From positions 1 to 22,489 of IMG/VR virus record IMGVR_UViG_3300010297_000097: a DNA stretch of 22,489 bases; one strand, written 5' to 3'. The notes beneath the pieces were generated by a model, which made no database searches, was not told the DNA's origin, and saw only the letters and a program-made list of their open reading frames with translations. The position numbers and the translations under genes are program-made. Within the stretch, counting starts at the first letter, position 1, and each line of letters opens with the position of its first letter. Shown here in pieces: positions 4,594 to 22,489 of this stretch. Origin of the DNA: a virus.

Positions 4594-5031
4594 ATGAGCG
4601 AATTAGAAAAACAGTTATATAAAAGGGTAAATGTTCCGGCAAAGCCTAAAACTGAAAGTACAGGCCGTGCTTACAGAGGCTTTTCTACGGTTGCCCAAGA
4701 AACTAACGATTGGTCTTTGTACGACTTTGAATTAGTTAAACAAGATCTTCTAAATCACTTCCATATACGTCAAGGGGAAAAATTAAGTGATCCAACATTT
4801 GGGTGCATTATATGGGATTTATTGTGGGAACCTTTTACAGACGACATACGAACTTCAATAATTAACAACGTAACTTCAATTGTTAATTACGATCCTAGAC
4901 TACAGGCTAGTGAAGTCATTGTAGATACTTTTGAACATGGTATACAAGTACAAGTAACCGTTACTTTTATAAATTACAATATTTCCGAAACACTAAAATT
5001 TAAGTTTGACCAAAATATTGGTTTAAATTAA
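4594..5031 (+). CDS. 25: baseplate wedge protein gp25
   Basis: This small wedge protein of the gp25/GPW family is found in contractile tails and type VI secretion baseplates, where it joins gp6 and gp53 in the wedge core and helps start sheath assembly. The 145 residues compare with 132 in T4. The family core is clear: LSDPTFGCIIWDLLWEPF at residues 64-81, then a helix and NYDPRL at 98-103, in the place of the family's conserved acidic-Pro-Arg motif. After this come the beta strands VIVDTFEHGIQVQVTVTF. An N-terminal extension of about 35 polar residues precedes the domain. The start at 4594 is seven bases after the gp5 stop. There is no strong ribosome binding site, only AGG 11 bases upstream, so translation is probably coupled to gp5. 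In T4, gene 25 lies in a different cluster, away from 5 and 6; here it lies between them. Confidence 0.93.
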   Translation: MSELEKQLYKRVNVPAKPKTESTGRAYRGFSTVAQETNDWSLYDFELVKQDLLNHFHIRQGEKLSDPTFGCIIWDLLWEPFTDDIRTSIINNVTSIVNYDPRLQASEVIVDTFEHGIQVQVTVTFINYNISETLKFKFDQNIGLN

Positions 5032-5080: not shown

Positions 5081-8000
5081 ATGTCATCTACAGATAGACA
5101 GTCAAGATTATTAGTAGCAGAGGACTGGAAACGAATTTATCAGTCCTTTCGTAATGTAGATTTTGAAAGTTATGATTTCGACAATTTGCGTCGAACAATG
5201 ATCAACTATCTACGTCAAAATTATCCAGAAGATTTTAACGATTATATTGAATCAAGCGAATTCCTTGCGCTAATTGATATGATTGCCTTTTTAGGCCAAA
5301 ACCTTTCCTTCCGTATTGATCTTAATGCAAGAGAAAATTTCCTTGAAACAGCCGAGCGTAGAGAAAGCATTTTACGTTTGGCACGTATGCTTGCTTATAA
5401 CCCAAGACGTAATCAGTGTGCAAACGGCTTACTAAAAATTACAACAGTTAAATCTACAGAAAACATATACGATTCAAATGGTCTTAATCTAGCAACTACA
5501 ACAGTTAAATGGAATGACCAGACAAACAGTAACTATTTTGAACAATTTATCAAAATATTGAATTCAGCTCTACCTGTACAAAACACTATAGGTAATCCTT
5601 TAAAACAAGCAACTATAGCAGATGTTGTAACACAAAAGTATAGAATAAACGGAACTAATACAAAGCAAGCAATTTATCCTTTTACTAAACGTATCGAAGG
5701 AAAAAGCACACGTTTTGAAGTGGTAAGTGTAGACATACAAAATGATGCATTAGTTGAAGAAGCACCACTTCCAGGTATAAGTCCAGCATTTTTATTTAGA
5801 GATGATGGACAAGGTGCTGCAAGTGCAAATACAGGATTTTTTATGCACTTCCGTCAAGGTAAACTTGAAGAAGGAACCTTTTCAATTACAAATCCAACAC
5901 CCAATCAAGCAGTTACAATTGACTCTGAAAATATTAATGATACAGACGTTTGGTTATATAGTGTTGATAGTGTTGGAATTGAAACAATACCTTGGACAAA
6001 AATAGACAGCGTTGAAGGCAACAATATCATTTATAATAATCTTTTCCAAGGAATTACAAATGTATTTGCTGTTAATACTAGAATAGGAGACAGAATCGGT
6101 CTAGTGTTTAGCGACGGAGTATTTGGATCGTTACCAAGTGGGAATTTCAAAGTCTATTATAGAACTAGTGCTAATAGAGGAATGGTTATTTCACCAACCT
6201 CTATGCAAAGAATTAATATAGATGTTCCTTACCAATCAAGAAACGGAACACTAGAAACCCTTACAATAGGACTTGAATTAAGATACACAGTTGCTAATTC
6301 ATCTCCAAGTGAAACTAATGACGAAATTAAATCAAATGCACCTGCAACCTATTATACACAAAATAGACTTATAACTGGTGAGGACTATAACATAGGGCCA
6401 TTAGCAATAAGTCAAGATATTGTTAAAACAAAAAGTGTAAACAGAATTAGTTCAGGAATAAGTCGTTACTTTGATTTAAAAGATACAAGTGGAAAATATA
6501 GCAATACTGACTTGTTCTCTACAGACGGAGTCATTTACAAAGAAGAATTTGAAGAAAAAACTAAATTTAGTTTTAACACACAAAGTGACATTGAAGGGGT
6601 TATTAATAATACTGTAGAAAGCATTATAACAAGTGCTTACGTAAGAAACTTTTATCTTAATAATTTTCCTCGTACAATTATTAGTGATCTAAACGTTAAA
6701 TGGCAAGAGGCTACTAGCGCAAACAATTATTATACAGGTAATGTAAAAGATATTGATGACGTTTTAGTACAAGTTGGTTCATTTACAGGTAATAGTTTAA
6801 GATATATTGAAGAAGGTGCGCTAGTCAAATTCGTACCTCCTACAGGTTACTATTTTGATTCTAACAATGAATTACAGTTAGGCTCTGCAACTAAAAAAGG
6901 TACAAAGGAATATATTTGGTCTAAAATTGTAAGTGTACAAGATGATGGAACTAATATCGATGATGACGGTTTTGGAGCCATAATTATAACAGATTACATA
7001 CCAACAAATTCAATACTACAAGAAATAGTTCCAAAGTTTAATCGAACAATTAACAATGACTTAAAAGTACAAATTATTGACCAAACTTTTGAATATAATG
7101 ATTTTGCTTTAAGATATAACACCGGAGATAGAGAATGGAGTTTAATCTTAGCAGAAGACATTAATACAACAAATGACTTTGCTGTTGGTAAAACAGGTGA
7201 TACTAGCGGTCAAAATCTTGATGCTAGTTGGTTACTTAGATTTAAAACTGACGGCGATACTTACGAAATAACATATAGAAATTTAAGATTTGTTTTTGAA
7301 AGTGATACAGAAATTAAATTCTTCTTTGATAGTGCTGACAAAGTATATGACACTAAAACAGGAAAAACTTATAGAGATCAAATTAATGTATTGAGTATTA
7401 ATACTCAGCCTGGATTAACAAGTGCGTATAATCGAGATTTTAACTGGACTATCCAAGATGCTTATAGAGACGTAGAAGGCTATGTAGATACTAAAAAAAT
7501 TATTGTCAATTATCTCGACAGCGACGACGATGGTGTTGTTGACGATCCAGAACTTTTCGACAAAATTGTTGATTATGATAATACTTCAGTTGCAAATGAA
7601 GACAAGATTATTTTCCAAGAAAGATATTACACATCAGATAATGTAGAAAACTATAGATACTTTGCAAATGATAATAATACTATTCTTATTGTTAATAACG
7701 AAGCAGCAATTGGTCCTTACAGTTCACGGGAAGAAGGACAAATATTCTATCTTTTAGAAGAAAAAGTTTTTAAAAAATTAAACAAAGCATTGAATAACAC
7801 TTCTTTGGTAATTGATTACAAAGCATACGAAGGTAGATCTAATTTAAAATTCCACTATGCGCATGTTGCAGATAGTAACTATAGAATCGATCCTGCTGTA
7901 AGTAATATTATTGATACTTTTGTTTTAACTAAAAGTTATGATACAAGCCTTAGAAGATGGTTAAAAGCCGACTCAGGACTAAAACCATTGCCGCCAAGCA

Positions 8001-8614
8001 ACGACGAGTTGTACAGAGAATATGGAGCAAAAATTAATAATATTAAATCTATAAGTGATGAAGTAATTTATCATCCAACACGTTATAAAATTCTGTTTGG
8101 AGCAAAGGCAGTGCCAGATTTACAAGTATCATTTAAAATAGTTAAAAATTCTAATCTTGTTGTAAACAATAACGAATTGAAGGCAGATATTATTAGTTCT
8201 ATAGATAGATTTTTTGCACTTGAAAATTGGGACTTTGGAGAAACTTTTTACTTCCAGGAACTAAGTGCATATGTAATTTCGCAACTAAGTCCAAAATTAG
8301 TAAGTTTCTTAATGGTACCAAAGCAAGTATCTCAATCATTTGGTAGTTTGTTCCAAATTAAATCAGAACCCGATGAAATTTTAATTAGTGGCGCAACAGT
8401 CAGCGACATTGAATTCATTGATGAGATTACAGCAGCAGCATTACAAGCATCAGGTGATGTAATACAAACAACTGATGACACAAATTATACTGCAATTCAA
8501 AGTAGTGTAAGTAATAATACAACGTACACATCAAGTTCGACTACTTCAACTACTTCAACTAGCACGTCTAGTACAAGTAGTACGTCATCTAGCAATGGAG
8601 GCTATAGTTACTAA
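5081..8614 (+). CDS. 6: baseplate wedge protein gp6 (enlarged)
   Basis: gp6 forms the dimeric wedge core and the inner ring of the baseplate that holds the hub and switches on sheath contraction. The N-terminal 110 residues are the diagnostic block: AEDWKRIYQSFRNVDFESYD (13-32), NYPEDFNDYIESSEFLALID (47-66) and LNARENFLETAERRESILRLAR (81-102). The C-terminal part resembles the baseplate J/gp6 end (NWDFGETFYFQELSAYVIS, then SPKLVSFLMVPK). At 1177 residues it is nearly twice T4 gp6 (660). The extra length is mainly in the middle, where there is a perfect EF-hand-like loop at residues 813-824 (D813, D815, D817, G818, D821, E824). The protein ends in a run of 22 Ser/Thr residues (1150-1171) followed by NGGYSY. 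It follows gp25 after 49 bases, with its own late-promoter-like box. Its stop codon overlaps the next start (TAATG). Confidence 0.95.
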   Translation: MSSTDRQSRLLVAEDWKRIYQSFRNVDFESYDFDNLRRTMINYLRQNYPEDFNDYIESSEFLALIDMIAFLGQNLSFRIDLNARENFLETAERRESILRLARMLAYNPRRNQCANGLLKITTVKSTENIYDSNGLNLATTTVKWNDQTNSNYFEQFIKILNSALPVQNTIGNPLKQATIADVVTQKYRINGTNTKQAIYPFTKRIEGKSTRFEVVSVDIQNDALVEEAPLPGISPAFLFRDDGQGAASANTGFFMHFRQGKLEEGTFSITNPTPNQAVTIDSENINDTDVWLYSVDSVGIETIPWTKIDSVEGNNIIYNNLFQGITNVFAVNTRIGDRIGLVFSDGVFGSLPSGNFKVYYRTSANRGMVISPTSMQRINIDVPYQSRNGTLETLTIGLELRYTVANSSPSETNDEIKSNAPATYYTQNRLITGEDYNIGPLAISQDIVKTKSVNRISSGISRYFDLKDTSGKYSNTDLFSTDGVIYKEEFEEKTKFSFNTQSDIEGVINNTVESIITSAYVRNFYLNNFPRTIISDLNVKWQEATSANNYYTGNVKDIDDVLVQVGSFTGNSLRYIEEGALVKFVPPTGYYFDSNNELQLGSATKKGTKEYIWSKIVSVQDDGTNIDDDGFGAIIITDYIPTNSILQEIVPKFNRTINNDLKVQIIDQTFEYNDFALRYNTGDREWSLILAEDINTTNDFAVGKTGDTSGQNLDASWLLRFKTDGDTYEITYRNLRFVFESDTEIKFFFDSADKVYDTKTGKTYRDQINVLSINTQPGLTSAYNRDFNWTIQDAYRDVEGYVDTKKIIVNYLDSDDDGVVDDPELFDKIVDYDNTSVANEDKIIFQERYYTSDNVENYRYFANDNNTILIVNNEAAIGPYSSREEGQIFYLLEEKVFKKLNKALNNTSLVIDYKAYEGRSNLKFHYAHVADSNYRIDPAVSNIIDTFVLTKSYDTSLRRWLKADSGLKPLPPSNDELYREYGAKINNIKSISDEVIYHPTRYKILFGAKAVPDLQVSFKIVKNSNLVVNNNELKADIISSIDRFFALENWDFGETFYFQELSAYVISQLSPKLVSFLMVPKQVSQSFGSLFQIKSEPDEILISGATVSDIEFIDEITAAALQASGDVIQTTDDTNYTAIQSSVSNNTTYTSSSTTSTTSTSTSSTSSTSSSNGGYSY
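7517..7552 (+). other. EF-hand-like calcium-binding loop in gp6
   Basis: Twelve residues, DSDDDGVVDDPE, match the Ca2+ loop pattern D-x-D-x-D-G-x-[IV]-D-x-x-E at every ligand position. A LFDKI helix-like stretch follows. Only a single loop is seen, as in dockerin or thrombospondin-type-3-like loops, with no paired hand. Confidence 0.55.
8528..8593 (+). repeat. Ser/Thr-only coding tract at the 3' end of gp6
   Basis: Twenty-two consecutive codons encode only Ser or Thr. Within the tract, the 9-base unit ACTACTTCA is repeated twice plus ACT (8540-8560), while the rest uses mixed AGT, AGC, TCT, TCA, ACG and ACA codons. It therefore looks selected at protein level and not like a simple slippage repeat. 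Confidence 0.8.
8596..8601 (+). promoter_or_regulatory. ribosome binding site for the giant gene, inside gp6
   Basis: TGGAGG within the last codons of gp6 is 12 bases before the ATG at 8614, slightly far for an optimal site. With the TAATG overlap of stop and start it suggests that the giant protein is made by re-initiation after gp6. Confidence 0.5.
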
Positions 8615-11600
8615 TGGCATTCAACGATAACAATGAATCCAACCAAAACGGGAAAGTTACAAGTAGCGATTTCCTGCCAAAGTTTTTTAGAACTAATGCA
8701 AACAAAAAGTTCTTACAAGCAACTTTTGACCAATTAATACAGCCAGGTGAAGCAGAAAAGATTCAAGGATATTTTGGTAGAAAGACTGCAAAAGCATTTG
8801 TGCCTTCTGATAACTATGTTGGCGATGTTTCTGCAGATAGATTAAACTATCAACTTGAACCTGCTGTTGTTGTTCAAGATGAATTTGAAAATACAACATT
8901 TTACAAAGATTATAATGATTATGTAAATCAACTTAAGGTGTTTGGAGCAGACACAAGAGATCATAGTCGCCTAAACAGTCAAGAATTTTATTCATGGAAT
9001 CCAAATATTGACTGGGATAAGTTTGTAAATTTTCGTGAATATTACTGGTTACCTAACGGTCCGCAAACGGTTCCTGTTAGAGGACAAGCCAGAGAAGTTA
9101 AAAGCACATATACAGTAACTCTAGCAGAAGATGATGATAACAAATCATATATCTTCAACGACGGATTAGAAAAAAATCCTACATTACAATTATATAGAGG
9201 ACAAACTTATCGTTTTGAAATTGATGTTCCTGGTGATCCAATAGCATTTTCGATTAGTAGAACTTTTACTCCAGGATCTGCAATATTAGTTGCTGGCAAC
9301 GAAGGAATTAGAGCACCTGGTGTATTTGATGGTACACTATACGATGAAGAAGATGCAAATTATGACTTAGGTGATTTTATTGTTTTGCCTAGTGCAGGTA
9401 GTGTTAGTTTTGAAGAAGACGAAAATGTAAGCACACTATACTCTGATGGAATAACAAAATACGACGAAGATGGAAATCCAATATCTCTTGTATACATAGA
9501 AAAAGGAACAATTGAGTTTTCAATTCCTGAAAATGCTCCTGATAGATTATATTATATTTCTAAAAATGATATTGATACAAGTGGTTATGTTAGAATTGCT
9601 AACATAGAAGAAAACACATTTTTAAATGTTGCTAATGATATTATTGGTAAAAAGACATACACTAGTGCAAATGGTGTAGAATTTACTAATGGTTTAAAAA
9701 TAAGATTCCAAGGCGATGTTGAACCAGAGATATATTCTTCAGGACAATGGTACGTTGAAGGTGTAGGAGAAAAAATTAAATTAGTAAATGAAACTGATTT
9801 AATAATTCCAGCACAATATTCTGAAGACGTTTTTGTTCCTTATGATGATGATAAGTTTGACACGTTACCATTCAGTAACGCAAATAGTTACGCCGGTACA
9901 AAAGATTATATTGTTATAAACCGTGCAAGCACAGACAGAAATCCTTGGAGTCGGTATAATAAATGGTTCCATAAATCTGTAATTGAAAAAAGTGCAGAAT
10001 ACAACAATACAACAAATGACACAAACGAGTCTTTTAGAGCCAAACGTCCAATTATTGAATTTGAAGCAGGACTTAAATTATACAATTATGGTAGTGCTGC
10101 TAAAACAGACATTGATCTAATTGATACTGTAACTGTCGATGCATTTTCTTATGTTGAAGGCCAAATAGGTTATAAAATAGATGGTATCGATCTTGCCGAT
10201 AATATGCGAGTTATTTTTACAGCAGATACTGATAATCTTGTAAACGGAAAAGTCTATATTGTAAAATTTATTCGAATTGGTAATAACAGACAAATTAGTT
10301 TAGTAGAAGCAGAAGACACAACTCCTCAAAGATTAGAAACAGTGCTTGTCACCAAAGGAAGAAAAAATGCTGGTAAAAGTTATTACTACAACGGCGAAGT
10401 TTGGAAACTAGGACAAGAAAAAACTACAACAAACCAAGAGCCGTTTTTTGATGTCTTTGGAATTGATAAGAAAAGTTTTGGTGATACTGATCAATATGCA
10501 GCAAATACGTTTAGAGGAACAAAACTTTTCAGTTATAAAAAAGGAACAGGATCAAATGATTCTGAACTAGGATTTCCACTAAGTTACAGAAATATCAATA
10601 ACAGCGGAGATATTCTTTTTGAATTTAATTTGTTAACAGATTCGTTTAGTTATGAACAAGATACAGATTATTATAAGAAATCTATAAATCCAGGATTCTT
10701 AAAAAAGTATAAGGATTTAACAAACTATTCTTGGGTTAACGGCTACACAAATAATCCAGCAAAAAGTGTACAAAAAGTTTTACGTCAGTACATTGTTACA
10801 GAAGACGCTGATCAACAAACATTCCAAGTTGATGTTTATAACAATGCAGGTACGTTAAGTGATATCGTAATTAATGTTTTTGTTAATAACAAAATTAGAA
10901 AAGATTATACACTTGATAGAACTAACAAAAAATTATACATAGTATTTGATCAAGAACTTGAAGAAAATGATGTTGTTTTAATAAAAACAAAATCTTCTGC
11001 AAAGAAAAACAATAACGGTTGGTACGATTTTCCAATTAATTTAGAAAGAAATCCGGCCAATGCTGATTTTTCAGAATTTACTCTTGGTGAAGTAATAGAT
11101 CATGTTGACACTATGGTTGAAGATCTTAGAGAATTTACTGGAACGTATCCAGGAATTAGTAATTTAAGAGACTTAGGAGACATTGACAGATTTGGTAAAA
11201 GATTTGTTAAGCATAGTGGTCCTATAAATCTTTCAAGTTATCACGTTACAAACAAAGGCTACAATCTTGTAAAAGCTCTAGATCATAGCAGACGAGAATA
11301 TGCAAGATTTAAAAGAAATTTTGTTGATGCATCAACTAAACTAGGTGTCGACACTGAGACTAAACAACATGTAGATGCTATTTTAAAAGATTTAAACAAA
11401 GACAAAGTAAAAACAGAACCTTATTATTTTAGTGATGTTCTTGCTTATCAATCAAGCAATACTATTGTGTACGAAGTTTTTGATGCAAGAGGACGTTATT
11501 ATGCATTATCAGAAGATTTTAATCTTTCAACATTAACAAATAAATCTGTTAATGTTTACCTAAACGGCGAACAATTAGTTTATGGTAGAGATTATGATTT

Positions 11601-14600
11601 TAGCAATCCTGGGTTTGTGTATGTGTTTGCAGACTTTGTCGAAGAAGGTGACACAATAACTGTATACGAATATAATTCAACTGATGGTAGTTATATTCCG
11701 CCGACTCCGACTAAATTAGGACTATATCCAAAATTTGAACCTGAATTAGTTTATGATGACACTTACAGACCAGAGCAAGGCGAGTTTCCGGAAGATGGAA
11801 CTCCTTATAAAATTTACGCACAATCTGAAAAAGGTTTTAGAGGTGAAAACCAAATTGGTTGGTTCTATCCTTTGTATACTGATATAGCATCGGCACAGCA
11901 GAAAGATATAGATGAAGGTGGTACAGGTGTAGCACACAGGCATATGTTCAAAGGATCGAACTTGGTATTGTATATGCCTAACACTGCATTTAATCATGCA
12001 ACTATTGATAGCGCATTATATGATCCTTATCCGTTTGGCGTTCCGATGATTAGAGGCCACGACGGTAGTTATGTTAGATGCTATAATGATTATAGAGATA
12101 AACTTCTTTTAGAATTAGAAAAAAGAATTTTTAATAATATTAAGATAGAGTACGACTCTACTAAATTAGATGTAGACAAATTTGTCGGCGGCGAGTTTAG
12201 AGATAGTGAATTTACTAGAGAAGAAATTAACACAACACTTCTTAGAACTTTCTCTGATTGGCTTACTTTCTTAAACAATGATTATACTGATCATTATTTT
12301 TATTTAAGACAGGATGAATTTACATTTAACTATTCTGCTATGAATTCATTCCAAGGAAATTCTATTCCAGGTTTTTGGAGAGGAATTTTCATGCAACTCT
12401 TTGATACTGATCGTCCGCATACATGTCCGTGGGAAATGCTCGGATTTAGAATCAAACCAAAGTGGTGGAACGAAGTTTATGGTCCAGCACCATATACAGG
12501 TGACAACTTATTAATTTGGGAAGATTTAGAACAAGGTAAAATTGCAGAACCTGGAAATGTAAGGTACGATACTCGTTATGAACGTCCAGGATTGACATCA
12601 AAAATTCCTGTAGATTCTGACGGAAATTTGATTAGTCCGCTACGTTGTAATTTACTTGATAATTTTATACTACGTCCAACCTCAGATAATTTTGCATTTG
12701 GCGATTGGGCACCAGTAGAAAACGCATGGCGCAGAAGTTCTGAATATCCGTTTGCATTACTAACAACGATGGTTCTTAATAAACCTGCAGAAACAATTGG
12801 TTTGGCTTTTGATATTAGCAGAACACAGAAAAACTTTGCTAATCAGTATATCTACGATGCGACAAGTAAAACAATCGAACTAGATCAAATTTTACTTCCT
12901 AACACAGTCGATTCAAATCAGCGTATAATGACAGCAGGCCTTGTAAATTATATTTCAAATTTAATTTCAAGTAATGTGTTAACTGTTTATGAAGATTACA
13001 AAAATGAATTAAAATCTGTAACTAATAGACTAGGGGTAAAAATTGGCGGATTTACTGATAAACAAAAACTAAGTGTTATACTAGACAGCAGAAGTATTGT
13101 TGAAGATCAAAGCCAAGATAGTGTTTTTGTACCACAAGAAAATTATGATGTATTTTTAAACACAAGTTCTCCTACAGATCTAGTAACTTATTCAGGACTT
13201 ATTATTGAAAAATTGGCTAATGGATTTGTTATAAGAGGATATAGTAAATCTAATCCGTACTTTGAGTATTATATTCCTAGTGCAGGAAGTAAAAAAACAA
13301 ACATTACGGTTGGAGGAATATCTGAAGTAACAACACAATGGGAAGAAGAAAAACCTTATATAAAAGGACAAGTTGTTGAAAATAATGGACGCTATTACAG
13401 AGTAAAACAAAGTTTTACATCAGGACAACAATTTGATACAGAAAATCTTGCACTACTAGGATCTCTACCAATTGTTGGCGGCAAGACAGCAGAGTTTAAT
13501 AAAAACTTTGGCAAAACTGTTTATAGAATTCCATACGGACATAGATTTTCTTCAAGTCAAGAAGTAGTTACTTTTATATTAGGTTACGCAGAAAGACTAA
13601 AAGACTTAGGATTTGAATTCAACTATACAGTAGACGGTCGCCAAATTGACGATTGGTCAGATTCTGCAAAAGAATTTTTGTTCTGGACCACCCAAGGTTG
13701 GGCTTCTGGGACTGTTCTTTCAATAAGTGCTTCAGCAAATAGGTTGTACTTTGACAAAGACTATAATGTAGTCGATGATCTATCAGATCCTTTCTATGGA
13801 TATTCTGTATTTGACGAAAACGGTTCGCCGCTTGAAGCAGATACTAGAAGCATTTTAAGAGACCAAAATAGTTTTGGAATAGAAACAATCGGAACAGATC
13901 ACGGTTTATATCATGTTGCACTTCCTACTGTACAAAAAGAGCATGTTGTAATTTTTGATAATAAAACTGTTTTTAACGACATTTTATATCAGCCATCATC
14001 AGGATATAGACAAGAACGCTTAAAAGTTAATGCTTATAGAACATCAGATTGGCAAGGTGGATTTAATGTTCCTGGGTTTGTATTTGATGATGCACGTTAT
14101 TCAACATGGACAGAATACAAAGATTATCAAATTGGCGACTTAGTAAAATATAGACAATATTATTATGTTGCTACTACTAATATCATAGGATCAAATATAT
14201 TTGATAACACTGTTTGGTATAGACTAAGCGAAGAACCAGAGAAGAAATTGTTAACAAACTTTGATTATAGAATTAATCAATTTATGGATTTTTATGATCT
14301 CGACAGTGTCGGGTTTGACGAATCACAACAAGAGTTGGCACAGCACTTAGTCGGATATCAAAAACGTCAATATCTAGCAAATATTATCAATGATGATGTT
14401 AGTCAGTTTAAGTTTTATAATGGATTTATTCAAGACAAAGGAACAGCAAACTCTGTTAAAAAACTTTTTGATTCGTTAGCAGGAAATACAGAAGAAAAGG
14501 TTGAATTGTTTGAAGAATGGGCAGTTCAAGTTGGTAGATATGGTTCTACTGAGAATGAAAAACAAATAGAATATAAGTTAACCGATTCTAAGTTAGAAGA

Positions 14601-17600
14601 GTCTCCGCAGATTTTTGAACTTGCAAATTCTCGTCCGGCAGAATTTGATAAAATTTATAGAATATATCCTTCTGAAGTTTATGATAAACCACAAGGGTAT
14701 GTGCATACTTCTGCATTGCCGGTAAAATCTTCAATAAATGAATATTTAAAAACAGGCGGGTATGTAAACGAAAATGATGTTACTTTTGTAAGTTATGATA
14801 AACAAGAATTACTTGGCGCAGATATAAATCAAGTTGAGTTAGGATCTTATATTTGGTTAGTAGAAACAGGTGCAGACGACTGGACAGTTTACCAAATTAT
14901 TGATACAGACATTAAGGCAACTGACTTTGTAAAAGAAACAGGAGTTTTTACTGATAAGGGAGAACCCTTGTCAGAATTAACACTAGATCAGTGGACAAAT
15001 GCAAGAATTGAAGAGAAAGAATATTTTGGCATATTAAATGCGTTTCGATTTAACATAAGCGGAATATATGAAGTATACGATGCTACACTTAATAAAATAC
15101 AATTTAATTCGGGTGAAGATGCAATTAACTTTGAAGACCAAAACTTTTCACTAGTTAAACTAAGAAAAGTTAGAGTTTCTAATTTAGCAACATTAAATGA
15201 TTTAGTTCAAGAAAAGCAATACGACGGACAAAAGTTTTGGGTAGACAATTACTCTAACGGTGTTTGGAACGTTGTTGAAAATAATCCTGTCTTTTCTCAA
15301 AGACAAGTAATGTCAAATCCAAGCGAGTATGACGGAACTAATCACGAATTTGGAAAAAATATTGCTGTTAGTGCTAATAACAGAGTGCTAGTTGTAGCAT
15401 CACCAAATGACGAAAATGGAAAAATTAATGTTTATGTAAGACCTAGAGAAAATAGCAACTATGTTGTTAAACAACAGATACAATTTGTTGATTCAACACT
15501 ACTTGATGTTAATAATACAAGATTTGGACATAGTGTAGATATATCACCTGACGGTGAATATATTGTTGTTGGTATGCCAAGAGCATCTGGTGTTAAAACA
15601 AGATATAAAGGCGACTTTGATCCAACATTACAGTATACTAAAGGAGATGTTGTAAAATACAGAGAGAGCATCTGGCAAGCTCTAAGAACAATTAATCCAC
15701 AAACCGGAAGCCAATCATTCACAACATTTGACTCTTATCAGTCATTAGTTGCGTTTGAAGATACTGACTCAACAAACAGCGTGTTATTAGTTGCAGGTAA
15801 TCCAGGATTACCTAATAATGTTGTTGACCATCTTTTAGTTAGAGCTCCGCTTGATATGTATCTTGGAACAAAAGCAAGAGATTTTGCTGCTGATACTCCT
15901 GGAGATCAAATTTTCTTAGATTGGAACTTAAGAAGTTATGCTAATCCAACACTAGACGACTATTATCCTTTTGATAACAACCTAACAGGAATTACACCTT
16001 CGTGGCTCGGAAGAACCCAAGGTCACGAAATTATTTTCAAAGTTGACTACATTGTGTATGTTGATACTTTTATAGCATTACCGGCAGTCGGCGAATTTGT
16101 AACAACTAATACAGGCCGCGCCGAAGTTGTTTATGTTGACACTAGCGAAGATAGTGCTGTTATATATGTAAAAGATACAAACGGTGTATTTGATATCTCA
16201 GGTGAATTGTTTATTGATGACGAAGACTTTGTTGGATTATATACTCTGGAATCAACTTATACAACAAGTGAACAAGTTGGCGGCTATTGGTTAATCAAAA
16301 CATATAACAGCGATGATCGTCCAGCAGTTGATTGGGAAAGTGAAATATCTGATGGCGATGGATTTACTTATGATAATATTGAAACTTGGTACGATGCAGG
16401 TAGAGGTTTAGTATACTCGGATGTTTTACTAGCCGAAGGCGGCAGAGATCCAAATGAGTATTACAACATTCAAACAACAGTAAGTGCAATCGGTACATAT
16501 GTCCTTAATAAAAATAGAACAAGTTGGGGAACTCAATTATCTTTCCGCGGAGATCCTACTATTGATGAAAACGATGGACAAGATGGATTTGAAAGATTTT
16601 GTCAATCTAACTATTGGGTACTAAGAGTTGGTAAAGAATTTTCAGATACACTCAACGGCGACGAAACATTTAATCTACAGTTTTATGACTTAGAAAATAG
16701 AGAAGTAGATTACGAAGCCGCTGCACTAACAGATGCTATTGTAAATGCACAACAAACAATAGTAGACATGTGGGACGGGTATATTGATTTTGAACTATCA
16801 AGATTTGATGCTTCAGGTTTCCCCTTCCAACCGCAGCCAAGATGGTATCACGAAGCAGACGGTACATTAAACACAACTGATAGAACCCAAGGCGATGTAA
16901 TTATTGATGTTCAGACAGCAAGCGATGGCGCGGGCGGCCTTGCTATAAGCCCACTGTCTCCAACCAGTGCTGCTGAAGTAATATACTTGCAAAGAGACTT
17001 CAATAAGATTAGAGTCTACGTTAAGATTCTTGAAGAATATAATGGAATAACTTACGGCGGAGATTTTACACAACTTAATAATATTGGTAGATATGAACTA
17101 AGACGTATCGGAAATGAAGATTTAAGAGGCGCAGGAGATGTTGACAGAACGTTTGCTGAAATAGATGATGCTAACAACGATATTGTGGTTGGCACAACTC
17201 AAGTTGGCAAATTACTAGTTTTCCAAGAAGACAGTATTTCAACTTTCAATAATAATATTAGTTGGGAAGATACTGTTGAATTTATTGATGAAGAATATTA
17301 TTTCTTCAATGAAAATACAGAAAGCGGAATTACTAGACCTGCTAACCCTCCATATGGGCTAAACAAAGATTATAAACAAATTTATCATTTGCCTGCAAAT
17401 TCTACAGGTGTTGCTGGTCCAGATCTTTCTGGTGCTATTGCAATTTATAGAAGACGTAAAGAAGGATCTTATGAATTAAAACATACACTAACTAGTTTGT
17501 TTTATGATGAGAATAGACAGTTTGGACACAAAGTAAAATTAGTACAAACTGATCGAGATTATACGTTATTTGTAGGAACTAGAGGTTTAGATGCTCCAGA

Positions 17601-20600
17601 AGAGTTAGGAGATTCAACTGTTGGTAGAAGAGAACATCCAGGCGAGATTGAAATTTTCCGTCATGGAGTTATTCCAACTGATAACTTTGCAGGACAGTAC
17701 CAAGATAGAGCATATGTAGAAGATGAAATTGTAACATATGAAGATCAATATTTCAGAGCAATTAGAGCAGTGCCTGTAGGTATTAATCCTCAATCTCCAG
17801 AATATTGGAATGATATTAGTTGGAAATACGGAAAAGACATCAATTATAGAGGAAACTGGGATAATTCTTACAGTTATGCTGAAGGTTCTATTGTTATTAG
17901 AGAACAAACAAAAATTTGGCTTGATGGATTAAATGGCGAACCACTTGCTGGCCAAAGCATAACATTCACTTCAGTTGATGATTCTACTATTATTGTTAAA
18001 ACAATAAATGCTGTTGACGGCAATGCTGTTATAATTGACGGCAACCATTACGCAGAATTTTTAACATTTGATTGGTCTCCAAAAAGTATTGTTACAATTA
18101 ATGGGTTTGATACTATAACTGCAACTGGAATACAAAACGTTTCAGTTATTAAAAAATTGTATCAAGCTCAAACAAATATTGGAGTAGGAGCAGAGTTTTC
18201 TAATACTGGATGGTCCCAACTAAGCAATAAAATAGACTACCTAGGATATTTGCCAAACTTAACAGGGCAGAGTTTGTACGATGAAGAAGTTTTTGATCCC
18301 GTACAAAATATTATTGATTTTAGTGAAACGTTTGATGTAAGCAACGACAGACAAGTGCTTATAGTCAAAGCCAATCTCAAAGAATCAGATAGTACTACAA
18401 AAACAAGATTAGTAGTATATAGATTAAACGATAACAAGTATCAACTAGACCAAGTAATTTCTGCACCGACAACAATTTTTAAAACTGTAGAAGAAGTCAC
18501 CGATCAAATTGTCATTGACATATCTGATATATTAATATCTAATACTACAAGAGAAGATGACATAATTCTTAGAATAAATGATCAACGTAAAGGATATGTT
18601 GGCGGCAGATGGACCCTAAATAACAACTTAATTACAGTCAATGATGTTGCTAAAAATGATGTAATTGAAATAACTGTTTATAACGAAACAACTGCTTGGG
18701 GCGAACGTGTTAGCCTTAACGACAGTGGCGATAAATTTGCTGTTAGTGCTAAACTTGATGATACTGCTGGAACCGATAAAGGTGTAGTATACATTTACAA
18801 ACAAATTAACGGAAGATTCCAAGTTGACCAAATATTAAGATCTCCACAAAACGAAGTAGCAGAGCAATTTGGTCATGGATTATACTTTGGATCTGATAAC
18901 TTAGTTGTTTCTAGTTTAAACGGAGATCAAATAATTCCAACAACATTTGACGGAACGTCGATAGGAAACACTGAACCTCAAACAACATTTGATAATAAGT
19001 TTACTTCGTTTAGAAATATTAAACTAGATAAAGGTGTAGTATATGTTTACGAAGACTTAGAAAATCAATTAGTGTTCGGCGAAAAATTAATCTATCCTTC
19101 AGTGCAAACAACATTTGGTGAAAATCTGTTTAGTTACGGCAACCATATATATGCTGGCATACCACGTCAAACTAACGAAAAATCTGTAGGACAAGTTATT
19201 GATTTTAGAAAAAATGCTGGTTATACTGCTTGGTCGTCAATCGATCAACAAATATTACCTGTAGATGTTGATAAGATTAGTGGCTTAATGTTATACAACA
19301 AACGTAAAAATGAACTCATTAGCAGACTAGATTATATTGATCCTCTACAAGGAAAAATAGCAGGTGTTGCTGAACAAGAAATTAACTACAAGGCAGGATT
19401 TGACCCAGCAGTATACAATACAGGACTTACAAACGACTTTTTAGTTGATCCTGCAAGATTCTGGGGAAATGAACACGTTGGCGAAATATGGTGGGCAACA
19501 AACACTGCTAGATTTGCTTATCCTTATAAGGGATCAGTTAACTCTCAAAAGAAAGATTGGAATAACTTGATAGCTGGATCTAACATTGATATTTTTGAAT
19601 GGGTAGAAAGTGAATTTGTTCCATCTGGATGGGATGAGCTTGCTGATACAGATGAAGGTTTGAAAAAAGGAATAAGCGGTCAGTCATTATATGGCAATAC
19701 AAGATATACCACTCAATTAGAATACGATAAACTTGCCCAAAATTTCCGTGCAAAATATTATTTCTGGGTGCAAGGCAAAAGAACGAAACCTACAACTCAT
19801 AAGCCTAAAAGAAAACTTAATACTATTGACATTGCAAGATTAATCGAAAATCCTAGATTACAAGGATATAGATATGCTTCGCTTATTTCAAAAAATACAT
19901 TTATTCTTAATAATTGTAATGATTTAATCCAAGGCGATGATGTTGTACTACAAATTAGATACAAAGAAGATGAAACACAAAATATAAACCAGCACAAAGA
20001 ATACCAAATTTTAAGTGAAGGTCTAGAATCAAGTGTTCTGCATCCAACTATTGAAAGAAAGTGGTATGACAGTTTAATTGGGTTTGATTTAAACAACAGA
20101 CCAGTACCTGATATTAATGTTCCGTCAAATAAGAGATACGGAATTCAAAATGTTCCTAGACAAAGCATGTTTCAGAATAGATTTGAAGCATTAAAACAAA
20201 CTATTGAACGAGCTAACATTGTATTAGGCGAACAGTTATTAATTGATACATACGATTTAAGCGAACTTCAAAGAAAAGAGCCTTTGCCTTCAAGCGTTTC
20301 AGGCGAATTTGATCTAAGTATTGCAACATATGATGATTTAAGATTTGTAAGCACTAACAAAATTACACAAGCAGAAATTGAATTAATTATTAGTAATGGA
20401 CGTATTATTAGTACAAACATTATTAATCCAGGACGTGGCTATAAAGTTGCACCTTCATATAACTTAGAAGGTCCTGGATCTGGCGCAATTATTGACTTTG
20501 AAATAAATTCTCTAGGACAAATTACCAATGTTATTATTGGCAATAGCGGCACAGGGTATTTAGAAAATACCAAATTGATAGTACGTCCATTTAGTGTATT

Positions 20601-22489
20601 AGTACAAACAAACGAAACACTATACGGTAAATGGGCAATATACAGTTGGAATGGTACTTCTTGGTTTATTCGAAGCATACAAGATTACGATGTAACTAAT
20701 TATTGGGATTATGTAGACTGGTATGCAGACGGTTATAACCAGTTTACAACAATCAATTACACAGTTCCTGGAACTTACATACTTCCGACAATATCAGATA
20801 GAACTGGAGATATTGTCAAAGTTGAGTCTGTTGGCTCAGGCGGTTGGGTTCTTTTAGAAAAGGTTGCTAATTTTGATACTGAAGATTATACACAAAATTA
20901 TAAAGTTGTAGGTAGACAAAATGGAACTATTCAATTCAAAGAAACTTTGTATAATTACGAAGTAAATCCTGTGGGTTATAGTAACAGAAGTTTCGACAGT
21001 TATTTTTACGACAATAACCCAGTAACTGAATTACGAATTATTTTTGCAGCACTTAGAGATGACTTATTAGTTGGGGATCTAAAATCTGAATACAACGGAT
21101 TGTTCTTTGTAGGTGTTCGCTATGCGATTGCTGAACAAAAGGGTATTGATTGGATATTTAAAACAAGTTTTGTAAAAGCAAAATATAATGTAAGCGAATT
21201 AAGAAATGATGTTACATTTAACAGCGATAATTTAAAAAGTTTTGAAGATTATCTAAAAGAAGTTAAGCCTTACAAAACTAAGATTAGAGAATATGTGGAT
21301 GTGTATAGTAAGGTAGAACCTACTAATACAAGTGTAACAGATTTTGATTTACCACCATATTATAGTTTGGCAGACGGATCTATTATTCCTAATAGATCTG
21401 TTATAACAGATGGAGTTATAGACGACCCAGACGGAGATTTTAATTCTTATCCACGAAAACATTTTATTGAAAATGTTGGATACCAATTAAAAGAAATTCA
21501 AATAAAAGATGGCGGTTCTGGATATACTCTAACACCAAAAATAGAAATTATTGGCGACTGCGAAGAACAAGCAACTGCTGTTGCTTACATCGGATATGGT
21601 AAAATTACTAGTGTTAAAATTACAAATCCAGGTAAAGGGTACTTAACAAGACCAATTGTTGAAATTACCGGATCACAATCAACTGGTAGTACACCTGCTA
21701 GAATGAGTGCTATACTTGGTTATAGTCCAGTTAGAACTCCTCATATTAGAGTTAAGTTTGATAGATATTCCGGCGAAGTTTATATCCAAGAATTACAAGA
21801 AGTACAAACATTTACTGGCAATAATGTTCAAGCAAAATTTGATCTTGAATGGCCTATGGACTTAGATAATAAAAAAGTCAAAGTTTATATAGATGGCAAA
21901 GAAATGTTACGTAGTACATATACTTACGAAAACATTGATAATACTGAGAAAAGTTATTCAAGACAAAATGGTCGAATAACTTTTGCAAAAATTCCTGCCA
22001 CAGGTGCAGCAATTGAAGTTAGATATTATAAGCCAATCGATATGCTTTCAGCACAGGATAGAATTCATCATTTCTATGAGCCGACTGTAGGTATGCTAGG
22101 TAAGAGTTTTTCTCAGTTAATGAAAGGTATCGATTACGGCGGCGTTGAAGTTAAATCATTTGGATTTGAAGGCGCAGCAGGTTGGGATACACAAGGTTGG
22201 TTTACAGATACTTGGGATGTCTTTGATAATACATACGAAGATGAAGTATTTGTTGCAGACGGCAGTACAATTTTCATTCAACTAACACAACCACTAGAAA
22301 ATGGTGTTACTTATAATGTTTATAAAGGAACTTCAGGATCTGTTGATTTAACTAGAATAGATGATCCTAACTATGGGACTGCTCAGCAAGTAAATGAAAA
22401 TGCTATTATGAATAGTTTAGTCGGTGACGGCGTACAAACTATAATCGATCTTGATACATTGGGTGTAAGTTTTGATGATGGCGAAACTA
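8614..22489 (+). CDS. giant multidomain virion structural protein, wedge/gp7 position (3' end outside window)
   Basis: I read the frame through from ATG 8614 to the right edge and found no stop: 4625 full codons, an estimated mass above 500 kDa, with the C-terminus missing. Its place after gp6 is that of T4 gp7 (1032 aa) and the other wedge genes. The first 160 residues (SSDFLPKFFRTNANKKFL, IDWDKFVNFREYYWLPNG) match what I recall of large structural proteins in marine T4-like phages. By eye, in order: a cupredoxin-like domain (about 180-327); NPWSRYNKWFH (about 445); YPLY...HRH...LYMPN (1087-1128); TDRPHTCPWEMLGF (from 1266); carbohydrate-binding-like modules (1576, 1832, 2341, 3029, 3082); an interrupted FG-GAP-like propeller (2246 to about 3530); YIDPLQGKIAG (about 3575); YWDYVDWYADGY (about 4030); G-x-GY repeat pairs (3938-3977, 4299-4338); GMLGKSF...GIDYGGV near the end. 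I see no signal peptide, membrane segment or protease motif. It is probably a peripheral baseplate scaffold or host-contact protein; the precise role is inferred. Confidence 0.92.
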   Translation, partial: MAFNDNNESNQNGKVTSSDFLPKFFRTNANKKFLQATFDQLIQPGEAEKIQGYFGRKTAKAFVPSDNYVGDVSADRLNYQLEPAVVVQDEFENTTFYKDYNDYVNQLKVFGADTRDHSRLNSQEFYSWNPNIDWDKFVNFREYYWLPNGPQTVPVRGQAREVKSTYTVTLAEDDDNKSYIFNDGLEKNPTLQLYRGQTYRFEIDVPGDPIAFSISRTFTPGSAILVAGNEGIRAPGVFDGTLYDEEDANYDLGDFIVLPSAGSVSFEEDENVSTLYSDGITKYDEDGNPISLVYIEKGTIEFSIPENAPDRLYYISKNDIDTSGYVRIANIEENTFLNVANDIIGKKTYTSANGVEFTNGLKIRFQGDVEPEIYSSGQWYVEGVGEKIKLVNETDLIIPAQYSEDVFVPYDDDKFDTLPFSNANSYAGTKDYIVINRASTDRNPWSRYNKWFHKSVIEKSAEYNNTTNDTNESFRAKRPIIEFEAGLKLYNYGSAAKTDIDLIDTVTVDAFSYVEGQIGYKIDGIDLADNMRVIFTADTDNLVNGKVYIVKFIRIGNNRQISLVEAEDTTPQRLETVLVTKGRKNAGKSYYYNGEVWKLGQEKTTTNQEPFFDVFGIDKKSFGDTDQYAANTFRGTKLFSYKKGTGSNDSELGFPLSYRNINNSGDILFEFNLLTDSFSYEQDTDYYKKSINPGFLKKYKDLTNYSWVNGYTNNPAKSVQKVLRQYIVTEDADQQTFQVDVYNNAGTLSDIVINVFVNNKIRKDYTLDRTNKKLYIVFDQELEENDVVLIKTKSSAKKNNNGWYDFPINLERNPANADFSEFTLGEVIDHVDTMVEDLREFTGTYPGISNLRDLGDIDRFGKRFVKHSGPINLSSYHVTNKGYNLVKALDHSRREYARFKRNFVDASTKLGVDTETKQHVDAILKDLNKDKVKTEPYYFSDVLAYQSSNTIVYEVFDARGRYYALSEDFNLSTLTNKSVNVYLNGEQLVYGRDYDFSNPGFVYVFADFVEEGDTITVYEYNSTDGSYIPPTPTKLGLYPKFEPELVYDDTYRPEQGEFPEDGTPYKIYAQSEKGFRGENQIGWFYPLYTDIASAQQKDIDEGGTGVAHRHMFKGSNLVLYMPNTAFNHATIDSALYDPYPFGVPMIRGHDGSYVRCYNDYRDKLLLELEKRIFNNIKIEYDSTKLDVDKFVGGEFRDSEFTREEINTTLLRTFSDWLTFLNNDYTDHYFYLRQDEFTFNYSAMNSFQGNSIPGFWRGIFMQLFDTDRPHTCPWEMLGFRIKPKWWNEVYGPAPYTGDNLLIWEDLEQGKIAEPGNVRYDTRYERPGLTSKIPVDSDGNLISPLRCNLLDNFILRPTSDNFAFGDWAPVENAWRRSSEYPFALLTTMVLNKPAETIGLAFDISRTQKNFANQYIYDATSKTIELDQILLPNTVDSNQRIMTAGLVNYISNLISSNVLTVYEDYKNELKSVTNRLGVKIGGFTDKQKLSVILDSRSIVEDQSQDSVFVPQENYDVFLNTSSPTDLVTYSGLIIEKLANGFVIRGYSKSNPYFEYYIPSAGSKKTNITVGGISEVTTQWEEEKPYIKGQVVENNGRYYRVKQSFTSGQQFDTENLALLGSLPIVGGKTAEFNKNFGKTVYRIPYGHRFSSSQEVVTFILGYAERLKDLGFEFNYTVDGRQIDDWSDSAKEFLFWTTQGWASGTVLSISASANRLYFDKDYNVVDDLSDPFYGYSVFDENGSPLEADTRSILRDQNSFGIETIGTDHGLYHVALPTVQKEHVVIFDNKTVFNDILYQPSSGYRQERLKVNAYRTSDWQGGFNVPGFVFDDARYSTWTEYKDYQIGDLVKYRQYYYVATTNIIGSNIFDNTVWYRLSEEPEKKLLTNFDYRINQFMDFYDLDSVGFDESQQELAQHLVGYQKRQYLANIINDDVSQFKFYNGFIQDKGTANSVKKLFDSLAGNTEEKVELFEEWAVQVGRYGSTENEKQIEYKLTDSKLEESPQIFELANSRPAEFDKIYRIYPSEVYDKPQGYVHTSALPVKSSINEYLKTGGYVNENDVTFVSYDKQELLGADINQVELGSYIWLVETGADDWTVYQIIDTDIKATDFVKETGVFTDKGEPLSELTLDQWTNARIEEKEYFGILNAFRFNISGIYEVYDATLNKIQFNSGEDAINFEDQNFSLVKLRKVRVSNLATLNDLVQEKQYDGQKFWVDNYSNGVWNVVENNPVFSQRQVMSNPSEYDGTNHEFGKNIAVSANNRVLVVASPNDENGKINVYVRPRENSNYVVKQQIQFVDSTLLDVNNTRFGHSVDISPDGEYIVVGMPRASGVKTRYKGDFDPTLQYTKGDVVKYRESIWQALRTINPQTGSQSFTTFDSYQSLVAFEDTDSTNSVLLVAGNPGLPNNVVDHLLVRAPLDMYLGTKARDFAADTPGDQIFLDWNLRSYANPTLDDYYPFDNNLTGITPSWLGRTQGHEIIFKVDYIVYVDTFIALPAVGEFVTTNTGRAEVVYVDTSEDSAVIYVKDTNGVFDISGELFIDDEDFVGLYTLESTYTTSEQVGGYWLIKTYNSDDRPAVDWESEISDGDGFTYDNIETWYDAGRGLVYSDVLLAEGGRDPNEYYNIQTTVSAIGTYVLNKNRTSWGTQLSFRGDPTIDENDGQDGFERFCQSNYWVLRVGKEFSDTLNGDETFNLQFYDLENREVDYEAAALTDAIVNAQQTIVDMWDGYIDFELSRFDASGFPFQPQPRWYHEADGTLNTTDRTQGDVIIDVQTASDGAGGLAISPLSPTSAAEVIYLQRDFNKIRVYVKILEEYNGITYGGDFTQLNNIGRYELRRIGNEDLRGAGDVDRTFAEIDDANNDIVVGTTQVGKLLVFQEDSISTFNNNISWEDTVEFIDEEYYFFNENTESGITRPANPPYGLNKDYKQIYHLPANSTGVAGPDLSGAIAIYRRRKEGSYELKHTLTSLFYDENRQFGHKVKLVQTDRDYTLFVGTRGLDAPEELGDSTVGRREHPGEIEIFRHGVIPTDNFAGQYQDRAYVEDEIVTYEDQYFRAIRAVPVGINPQSPEYWNDISWKYGKDINYRGNWDNSYSYAEGSIVIREQTKIWLDGLNGEPLAGQSITFTSVDDSTIIVKTINAVDGNAVIIDGNHYAEFLTFDWSPKSIVTINGFDTITATGIQNVSVIKKLYQAQTNIGVGAEFSNTGWSQLSNKIDYLGYLPNLTGQSLYDEEVFDPVQNIIDFSETFDVSNDRQVLIVKANLKESDSTTKTRLVVYRLNDNKYQLDQVISAPTTIFKTVEEVTDQIVIDISDILISNTTREDDIILRINDQRKGYVGGRWTLNNNLITVNDVAKNDVIEITVYNETTAWGERVSLNDSGDKFAVSAKLDDTAGTDKGVVYIYKQINGRFQVDQILRSPQNEVAEQFGHGLYFGSDNLVVSSLNGDQIIPTTFDGTSIGNTEPQTTFDNKFTSFRNIKLDKGVVYVYEDLENQLVFGEKLIYPSVQTTFGENLFSYGNHIYAGIPRQTNEKSVGQVIDFRKNAGYTAWSSIDQQILPVDVDKISGLMLYNKRKNELISRLDYIDPLQGKIAGVAEQEINYKAGFDPAVYNTGLTNDFLVDPARFWGNEHVGEIWWATNTARFAYPYKGSVNSQKKDWNNLIAGSNIDIFEWVESEFVPSGWDELADTDEGLKKGISGQSLYGNTRYTTQLEYDKLAQNFRAKYYFWVQGKRTKPTTHKPKRKLNTIDIARLIENPRLQGYRYASLISKNTFILNNCNDLIQGDDVVLQIRYKEDETQNINQHKEYQILSEGLESSVLHPTIERKWYDSLIGFDLNNRPVPDINVPSNKRYGIQNVPRQSMFQNRFEALKQTIERANIVLGEQLLIDTYDLSELQRKEPLPSSVSGEFDLSIATYDDLRFVSTNKITQAEIELIISNGRIISTNIINPGRGYKVAPSYNLEGPGSGAIIDFEINSLGQITNVIIGNSGTGYLENTKLIVRPFSVLVQTNETLYGKWAIYSWNGTSWFIRSIQDYDVTNYWDYVDWYADGYNQFTTINYTVPGTYILPTISDRTGDIVKVESVGSGGWVLLEKVANFDTEDYTQNYKVVGRQNGTIQFKETLYNYEVNPVGYSNRSFDSYFYDNNPVTELRIIFAALRDDLLVGDLKSEYNGLFFVGVRYAIAEQKGIDWIFKTSFVKAKYNVSELRNDVTFNSDNLKSFEDYLKEVKPYKTKIREYVDVYSKVEPTNTSVTDFDLPPYYSLADGSIIPNRSVITDGVIDDPDGDFNSYPRKHFIENVGYQLKEIQIKDGGSGYTLTPKIEIIGDCEEQATAVAYIGYGKITSVKITNPGKGYLTRPIVEITGSQSTGSTPARMSAILGYSPVRTPHIRVKFDRYSGEVYIQELQEVQTFTGNNVQAKFDLEWPMDLDNKKVKVYIDGKEMLRSTYTYENIDNTEKSYSRQNGRITFAKIPATGAAIEVRYYKPIDMLSAQDRIHHFYEPTVGMLGKSFSQLMKGIDYGGVEVKSFGFEGAAGWDTQGWFTDTWDVFDNTYEDEVFVADGSTIFIQLTQPLENGVTYNVYKGTSGSVDLTRIDDPNYGTAQQVNENAIMNSLVGDGVQTIIDLDTLGVSFDDGET
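9151..9594 (+). other. cupredoxin-like domain lacking metal ligands (giant protein)
   Basis: Residues about 180-327. The strand order NPTLQLYRGQTYRFEID, then PGDPIAFS, then GTIEFSIPENAPDRLYYIS and GYVRI resembles the cupredoxin-like modules common in marine phage structural proteins, as I remember them. Those have PGHPF and YYxCxxH ligands; here the His is Asp (D208) and YYISKND has neither Cys nor His. About 85 residues are inserted in the middle. Confidence 0.45.
13339..13437 (+). other. ChtBD3/CBM5-12-like module, copy 1 (giant protein)
   Basis: From residue 1576: WEEEKPYIKGQVVENNGRYY, then RVKQSFTSGQQFD. The order W, Y-x-x-G-x-x-V, YY and a following S/T turn is that of short chitin/cellulose-binding modules. 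The call rests on pattern only. Confidence 0.4.
14107..14226 (+). other. ChtBD3/CBM5-12-like module, copy 2 (giant protein)
   Basis: From residue 1832: WTEYKDYQIGDLVKYRQYYY, then VATTN...FDNTVWYRL. This is the best match of the set to the pattern W...Y-x-x-G-D-x-V-x-Y...YY-x-A...W. Confidence 0.45.
15634..15720 (+). other. ChtBD3/CBM5-12-like module, copy 3, at the start of the first propeller insertion
   Basis: From residue 2341: YTKGDVVKYRESIWQALRTI, then NPQTGSQSF. It directly follows the second propeller blade and shares the NPQ turn with the copy at 17698. Confidence 0.4.
17698..17925 (+). other. ChtBD3/CBM5-12-like modules, copies 4 and 5, at the start of the second propeller insertion
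   Basis: Residues 3029-3071 read YQDRAYVEDEIVTYEDQYFR, then NPQSPEYWNDI. From 3079, YRGNWDNSYSYAEGSIVIRE looks like a further, more divergent copy. They follow the fourth blade just as copy 3 follows the second. Confidence 0.4.
20425..20580 (+). repeat. G-x-GY repeat pair A (giant protein)
   Basis: NPGRGY at residue 3938 and NSGTGY at 3977, 39 residues apart. They are joined by a GPGSGAIIDFEINSLGQITN linker, giving two short beta units. The translation is directly readable; the fold is unknown. Confidence 0.6.
21508..21672 (+). repeat. G-x-GY repeat pair B (giant protein)
   Basis: DGGSGY at residue 4299 and NPGKGY at 4338, again 39 residues apart. TPKIEIIG and RPIVEITG strands follow each one, with a YGKITSVKI linker between them. 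The architecture is the same as pair A, about 360 residues earlier. Confidence 0.6.

What the first reader, a model, noticed from the sequence alone, without database searches (positions are those of the whole stretch)
8614..22489. Single giant structural gene of at least 4625 codons directly after gp6
Reading each codon to the window edge shows no stop over 13.9 kb of AT-rich DNA, so a very large protein is under selection. T4 has several separate wedge genes (7, 8, 9, 10, 11) after gp6, the largest 1032 aa. A giant protein of beta-rich modules here suggests either a fusion of wedge functions or an additional ring or fibre-like structure around the baseplate.
Basis: partly seen in the sequence, partly recalled or inferred. 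Interest (0 to 1): 0.8.

Follow-up and report, generated by a model that had tools for sequence, protein, structure and literature searches.

The report
Giant jumbo-phage baseplate protein after gp6
This is one very long but genuine phage gene, about 5,351 codons, whose product is a tail-baseplate protein of a kind already known from several large phages, and it most likely fills the place of a much smaller building block (gp7) in phage T4.

Summary
One frame is open from ATG 8614 to the window edge (4,625 codons, no stop; chance about 10^-170) and is under strong purifying selection (dN/dS about 0.13-0.15). A 99.3%-identical contig carries the end: the full protein is about 5,351 aa (606 kDa). 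All 38 contigs of relatives checked for full length have one uninterrupted frame of 4,716-5,626 codons.

It is not unprecedented. It belongs to PHROG_10938, the giant virion protein lying directly after gp6 in jumbo myoviruses (Phosso 4,555 aa, Atu_ph07 4,449, PA5oct 3,857, SCTP-2 3,807, RaK2 3,326). Counterparts were found in virions by mass spectrometry (PA5oct, CBB, phAPEC6). T4-like cyanophages also have giant proteins in this slot (P-SSM2 gp7, 5,195 aa).

Best reading: a hugely expanded gp7/Tri2 wedge protein. The order gp25-gp6-giant, and an invariant 'KGT' segment (aa 1884-1990) that is the best-scoring place for both cyanophage-gp7 and P2-gpI profiles (0 of 200 column shuffles reach either score), support this. 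The sequence match is weak and direct T4 gp7 comparison fails, so gp7 homology is likely, not shown. Extra modules (cupredoxin-like, chitin-binding-like, FG-GAP-like, GxGY) lie on both sides, with a variable insert at aa 2100-3540.

The parts
2103..4586 (+). gp5-like baseplate hub / tail lysozyme (827 aa) with VgrG3-like C-terminal domain
   Evidence: phrog_13211 E 1.5e-49; PF21277 E 2.3e-35; PF04717
4594..5031 (+). gp25 baseplate wedge (sheath initiator) protein, 145 aa
   Evidence: phrog_261 E 9e-17; PF04965 E 5e-9
5081..8614 (+). gp6 baseplate wedge protein, 1,177 aa (T4 gp6 is 660 aa)
   Evidence: phrog_10646 E 1.3e-294; phrog_219 E 1e-19
8614..22489 (+). giant virion structural gene, 4,625 of about 5,351 codons; stop lies about 2.2 kb beyond the window in L009, L010 and L011; start overlaps the gp6 stop (TAATG)
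   Evidence: phrog_10938 E 0
8668..9093 (+). conserved N-terminal block, aa 19-160, shared by all jumbo-phage homologues
   Evidence: blastp 30-39% identity to six isolates
9106..9603 (+). beta-sandwich module, aa about 165-330, cupredoxin-like; largely absent from RaK2 and similar phages
   Evidence: AF2 model mean pLDDT 76 but below 50 at aa 218-292; Foldseek PDB best matches are CueO cupredoxins, E 5e-4, TM low; closest BFVD relative named 'YHYH domain-containing'
12028..14649 (+). best-conserved block of the family, aa 1139-2012
   Evidence: blastp E 1e-59 to 1e-109 to the isolates; best PHROG stretch
13336..13428 (+). CBM5/12 (chitin-binding-like) module 1, aa 1575-1605
   Evidence: PF02839 26.0 bits, just below the 26.2 cut-off; profile of A2 picks chitinase A1 ChBD, E 0.15; Foldseek hits chitin-binding domains, prob 0.99-1.0
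14107..14172 (+). CBM5/12-like module 2, aa 1832-1853
   Evidence: second PF02839 stretch counted; motif search
14263..14583 (+). candidate gp7/Tri2 core, aa 1884-1990, invariant FYxGfIxxKGT...EEW motif (KGT at nt 14437-14445)
   Evidence: A3 invariant columns; best window for both P2 gpI and cyanophage gp7 profiles; 0/200 shuffles
14911..19233 (+). lineage-variable insert, aa 2100-3540, with FG-GAP-like repeats (aa 2246, 2304, 2970, 3419, 3501); about 120 aa in RaK2
   Evidence: alignment gaps; PF14312 24.3 bits versus cut-off 23; motif search
19231..21363 (+). two further conserved blocks, aa 3540-3885 and 4026-4250
   Evidence: blastp to the six isolates
20401..20613 (+). GxGY beta-repeat module, copy 1 (aa 3930-4000)
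   Evidence: motif search; profile match to S-PM2 giant, prob 74%
21481..21693 (+). GxGY beta-repeat module, copy 2 (aa 4290-4360)
   Evidence: phrog_701 and phrog_460 matches

Best explanation
The gene encodes a single giant baseplate-wedge protein of a jumbo myovirus, occupying the gp7 (Tri2 / P2 gpI) position. A short core near aa 1884-1990 would form the heterotrimeric wedge element with two gp6 subunits. About 1,880 residues before it and 3,360 after it form beta-rich modules that build the outer baseplate and dock fibres or contact the host surface. Six copies would be expected if it assembles like T4 gp7. Shown: a single intact ORF, selection, family membership, position after gp6, and homologues present in virions. 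Inferred: baseplate location, pairing with gp6, copy number and the roles of the modules.
For: Same family and same place after gp6 in isolated jumbo phages. Counterparts detected in virions: PA5oct gp355 marked ESI-MS/MS; CBB_236, 21 peptides, next to baseplate wedge CBB_237 (PMC5259590); phAPEC6 gp245, 382 kDa, 17 peptides, next to gp244 baseplate wedge (PMC7247149). CBB_236 and gp245 are identified as this protein by position and size, not by sequence. Gene order gp25-gp6-(gp7) is shared with cyanophages, where the next gene is annotated gp7 or wedge initiator and is often giant; gpJ-gpI order in P2-like phages. KGT segment: top-ranked of 41 windows for the cyanophage gp7 profile (E 0.005) and the P2 gpI profile (E 0.0026); 0/200 column shuffles reach either score; cyanophage gp7 versus P2 gpI itself scores only E 0.0049 with the same method. 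No other gp7 was detected in five complete jumbo genomes, while T4, P-SSM2 and S-PM2 controls ring.
Against: Direct comparison with T4 gp7 is not significant (5/200 shuffles as good). HMMER finds no Tail_P2_I, gp7 or PDB relative, although Tail_P2_I also misses T4 and P-SSM2. The P2 and cyanophage profiles share the KGT motif, so they are not independent tests. AF2 gives pLDDT below 50 for most of the core segment. PHROG files the family under 'head and packaging'.
Confidence: 0.72

Rival explanations
1. It is a peripheral baseplate or fibre-like protein (an extra ring, whisker base or adsorption platform) that merely sits in the gp7 gene position; the true Tri2 partner of gp6 is encoded elsewhere and is too divergent to see.
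For: Much of the protein is beta modules of the kind found in fibres and adhesins; whisker or hair-like appendages are reported for relatives CBB and phAPEC6 (PMC5259590; PMC7247149); no significant gp7 match by HMMER.
Against: Strict position after gp6 in distant lineages, the KGT element found by two gp7/gpI profiles, and giant gp7s in cyanophages. Other proteins downstream look like the fibres (Tail Collar domain).
Confidence: 0.2
2. The ORF is a polyprotein or gene fusion that is cleaved, so separate wedge proteins (gp7-, gp8-, gp10-like) act in the virion.
For: One synteny slot could replace several T4 genes; no true gp8 was found in PA5oct, SCTP-2 or RaK2; in cyanophage DSL-LC02 the slot holds two adjacent 'wedge initiator' genes.
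Against: No cleavage site or protease was identified; no lineage examined splits this family; phAPEC6 and CBB proteomes list a single entry, though the listed mass is predicted, not measured.
Confidence: 0.06
3. Assembly or sequencing artefact (a missed stop or chimera).
For: Only the usual caution with metagenome contigs.
Against: Five near-identical contigs agree with it and 38 relatives from separate contigs are open over 4,716-5,626 codons; isolates show the same gene.
Confidence: 0.01

Closest known systems
PHROG_10938: giant virion structural protein of jumbo myoviruses (RaK2 ORF070, PA5oct gp355, Atu_ph07 gp180, Phosso, SCTP-2 gp140, XaC1)
   Same: Directly after gp6; colinear conserved blocks at 24-39% identity; beta-rich; homologues found in virions
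   Different: Longer (about 5,351 versus 3,326-4,555 aa), with a different insert at aa 2100-3540 and an N-terminal cupredoxin-like module largely missing from RaK2
T4-like cyanophage giant gp7 (P-SSM2 gp7 5,195 aa; S-CAM9 3,884; S-PM2 p084 3,048)
   Same: gp25-gp6-giant gene order, size, shared GxGY beta modules, KGT element
   Different: No overall sequence similarity; the KGT element is near the N-terminus (about aa 190-230) rather than near aa 1942; a separate gp8 follows
T4 gp7 (1,032 aa)
   Same: Gene position after gp6; core flanked by added domains
   Different: No significant sequence match; one fifth of the size
P2 gpI / Tail_P2_I (Tri2)
   Same: Directly after the gp6 homologue gpJ; KGT...EW motif
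   Different: 176 aa in P2; none of the added modules

Membership tests
PHROG_10938 giant virion protein | profile match over the conserved blocks | tested here: met
   E 0, 1,058 bits, six stretches
PHROG_10938 giant virion protein | encoded directly after gp6 | tested here: met
   TAATG overlap with gp6; same in six isolates (the preceding SCTP-2 gene is unannotated)
PHROG_10938 giant virion protein | present in the virion | not testable with these tools
   shown only for relatives (PMC5259590; PMC7247149)
gp7 / Tri2 wedge protein | gene directly downstream of gp6 | tested here: met
gp7 / Tri2 wedge protein | KGT core motif alignable to cyanophage gp7 and P2 gpI | tested here: inconclusive
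   best of 41 windows, 0/200 shuffles, but E 0.0015-0.005 and HH probability under 20%
gp7 / Tri2 wedge protein | significant match to T4 gp7 or Pfam Tail_P2_I | tested here: not met
   Tail_P2_I also misses T4 itself, so weakly informative
gp7 / Tri2 wedge protein | heterotrimer with two gp6 subunits | not testable with these tools
   needs cryo-EM or co-folding of the complex

The most novel reading that the evidence does not exclude
In this jumbo-phage lineage one 606-kDa chain replaces several T4 wedge proteins (gp7 plus gp8 and perhaps outer parts), so that six copies (about 3.6 MDa) form most of the outer baseplate, with carbohydrate-binding and propeller-like modules built into the wedge itself and swapped between lineages at a central insertion site.
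Probability: 0.25. Interest if true: 0.55.

Novelty: new member of a known kind. Interest (0 to 1): 0.33.

Why it matters
It shows that a giant gp7-slot protein is the rule, not an oddity, across a large group of jumbo phages as well as in T4-like cyanophages, and it points to a short candidate core (aa 1884-1990) by which the 'missing gp7' of jumbo phages could be tested. If right, the expansions flanking a small conserved core explain how these phages enlarge and diversify their baseplates.

Tried and rejected
Direct HHalign of all giant segments against T4 gp7: nothing significant. N-terminal block (aa 1-220) as the gp7 core: no match to either gp7 profile. Sequence search of the PDB with the whole protein and with three profiles: nothing usable. 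Pfam Tail_P2_I in the window and in jumbo phages: no match, but it also misses T4 and P-SSM2, so uninformative. Foldseek of the aa 1095-2110 model: no hit below E 0.05 and only chitin-binding domains credible. gp8 profile hits in the Phosso and Atu_ph07 giants fall on positions about 190-280 only, the shared GxGY-type beta module, so not read as gp8. phrog_2885 was too long to send. Literature searches found no paper that discusses this protein by function.

Full report
OBSERVATION. The ORF is real. From ATG 8614 one frame is open for 4,625 codons to the window edge. Given the base composition a stop is expected every 12 codons, so an open run this long has log10 P of about -170; the other five frames contain 232-649 stops. 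The start overlaps the stop of gp6 (TAATG), which suggests coupled translation.

END OF THE GENE. The record itself stops at 22,489 bases. Three near-identical IMG/VR contigs (99.3-99.9% identity) run on and end the frame at the same place, 726 residues past the window edge. The full product is about 5,351 aa, 606 kDa, pI 4.6 (N-terminal part from the window, C-terminal part from L011). In 38 further contigs of relatives the frame is 4,716-5,626 codons with no stop inside. dN is 0.23-0.24 and dS 1.5-1.9 against relatives, uniformly along the gene. The gene is therefore intact and selected.

SURROUNDINGS. Upstream are gp5-like hub/lysozyme (2103-4586), gp25 (4594-5031) and gp6 (5081-8614), all by profile match. 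Downstream, read from L011/L033/L034, are a conserved protein of about 220 aa (phrog_11259), then three fibre-like proteins (one with a Tail Collar domain), then radical-SAM and other metabolic genes. No gp8-gp11-like genes were recognised there.

FAMILY. The protein matches PHROG_10938 and, by tblastn, 57 phage records. In six isolates examined the homologue lies directly after gp6 or in the equivalent place: Phosso 4,555 aa, Atu_ph07 4,449, PA5oct 3,857, SCTP-2 3,807, RaK2 3,326, XaC1 3,332. Conserved blocks are colinear: aa 19-160, 335-1069, 1139-2012, 3540-3885, 4026-4250. PA5oct gp355 is annotated as found by ESI-MS/MS. In CBB the protein next to the wedge protein is CBB_236 with 21 peptides at 7.72% coverage (PMC5259590), and in phAPEC6 gp245, 381.88 kDa, 17 peptides, follows gp244 'baseplate wedge' (PMC7247149); these two are identified here by position and size only. 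Hence homologues are virion proteins.

CYANOPHAGE PARALLEL. T4-like cyanophages also place a giant protein after gp25-gp6: P-SSM2 gp7 5,195 aa, S-CAM9 3,884 aa, S-PM2 3,048 aa, while S-CRM01 has 1,454 aa and Pelagibacter phage Mosig 874 aa. Their N-terminal profile matches T4 gp7 727-826 (HH probability 90%), so those are gp7. The giant of this window has no overall similarity to them but shares a GxGY beta module.

IS IT GP7? Synteny says so: the gene after gp6 is gp7 in T4 and gpI after gpJ in P2-like phages. In sequence, aa 1884-1990 holds the motif FYxGfIxxKGT...EEW, with Y, G, I, K, G, E invariant from RaK2 to the window. Scanning the whole protein in 41 windows, this region is the best match both for a cyanophage gp7 profile (E 0.005) and for a P2 gpI profile (E 0.0026), in both cases KGT on KGT. 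None of 200 column-shuffled versions reaches either score; for T4 gp7 5 of 200 do, in a different register. The same method gives cyanophage gp7 versus P2 gpI only E 0.0049, so weak scores are expected at this distance. The two profiles share the motif and so are not independent. I regard gp7/Tri2 homology of this short core as likely (about 0.7), not proven.

MODULES. AlphaFold2 of aa 1-1100 (pLDDT 76) shows beta domains; aa 165-370 resemble cupredoxins, and the closest viral models are annotated 'YHYH domain-containing' or Atu_ph07 structural protein. aa 1575-1605 and 1832-1853 resemble CBM5/12 chitin-binding domains (just below the Pfam cut-off). FG-GAP-like repeats are scattered over aa 2246-3515 (Pfam 24.3 bits versus cut-off 23), inside a region of about 1,450 aa that is replaced by about 120 aa in RaK2. 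These suggest surface-binding or docking roles; that is inference.

MECHANISM (inferred). Two gp6 chains and the KGT core form the wedge; long N- and C-terminal arms of beta modules build the outer baseplate and carry fibres or bind host surface glycans. Rivals are a peripheral fibre/ring protein with gp7 encoded elsewhere (0.2), a cleaved polyprotein (0.06) and an artefact (0.01).

NOVELTY. A new and rather long member of a known kind. The surprise relative to T4 disappears once jumbo phages and cyanophages are considered; what is new here is the complete length, the conservation across 38 contigs and a candidate wedge core.

Noticed in passing
L006:8609-17899 (Salicola phage SCTP-2): The gene just before the giant is itself 3,096 codons long, in the place where other phages have a gp6 of about 1,200 aa; possibly a second expanded wedge protein.
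   Followed up: no
L150:11974-23820 (cyanophage DSL-LC02): The gp7 slot holds two adjacent genes (2,514 and 1,432 aa), both annotated 'baseplate wedge initiator': a natural split of a giant gp7.
   Followed up: no
window 2103-4586: The gp5-like hub protein ends in a VgrG3-like C-terminal domain (PF21277, E 2e-35).
   Followed up: partly
L034:178-13153 (same virus species, downstream contig): Metabolic genes near the tail cluster: aminotransferase, radical-SAM proteins, Nol-like carbamoyltransferase (E 4e-111), taurine dioxygenase-like.
   Followed up: partly
window 5081-8614: gp6 is 1,177 aa, nearly twice T4 gp6, so expansion is not limited to the giant protein.
   Followed up: no
window 1071-2069: 332-aa ORF without any PHROG or Pfam match, between a virion structural protein and gp5.
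   Followed up: no
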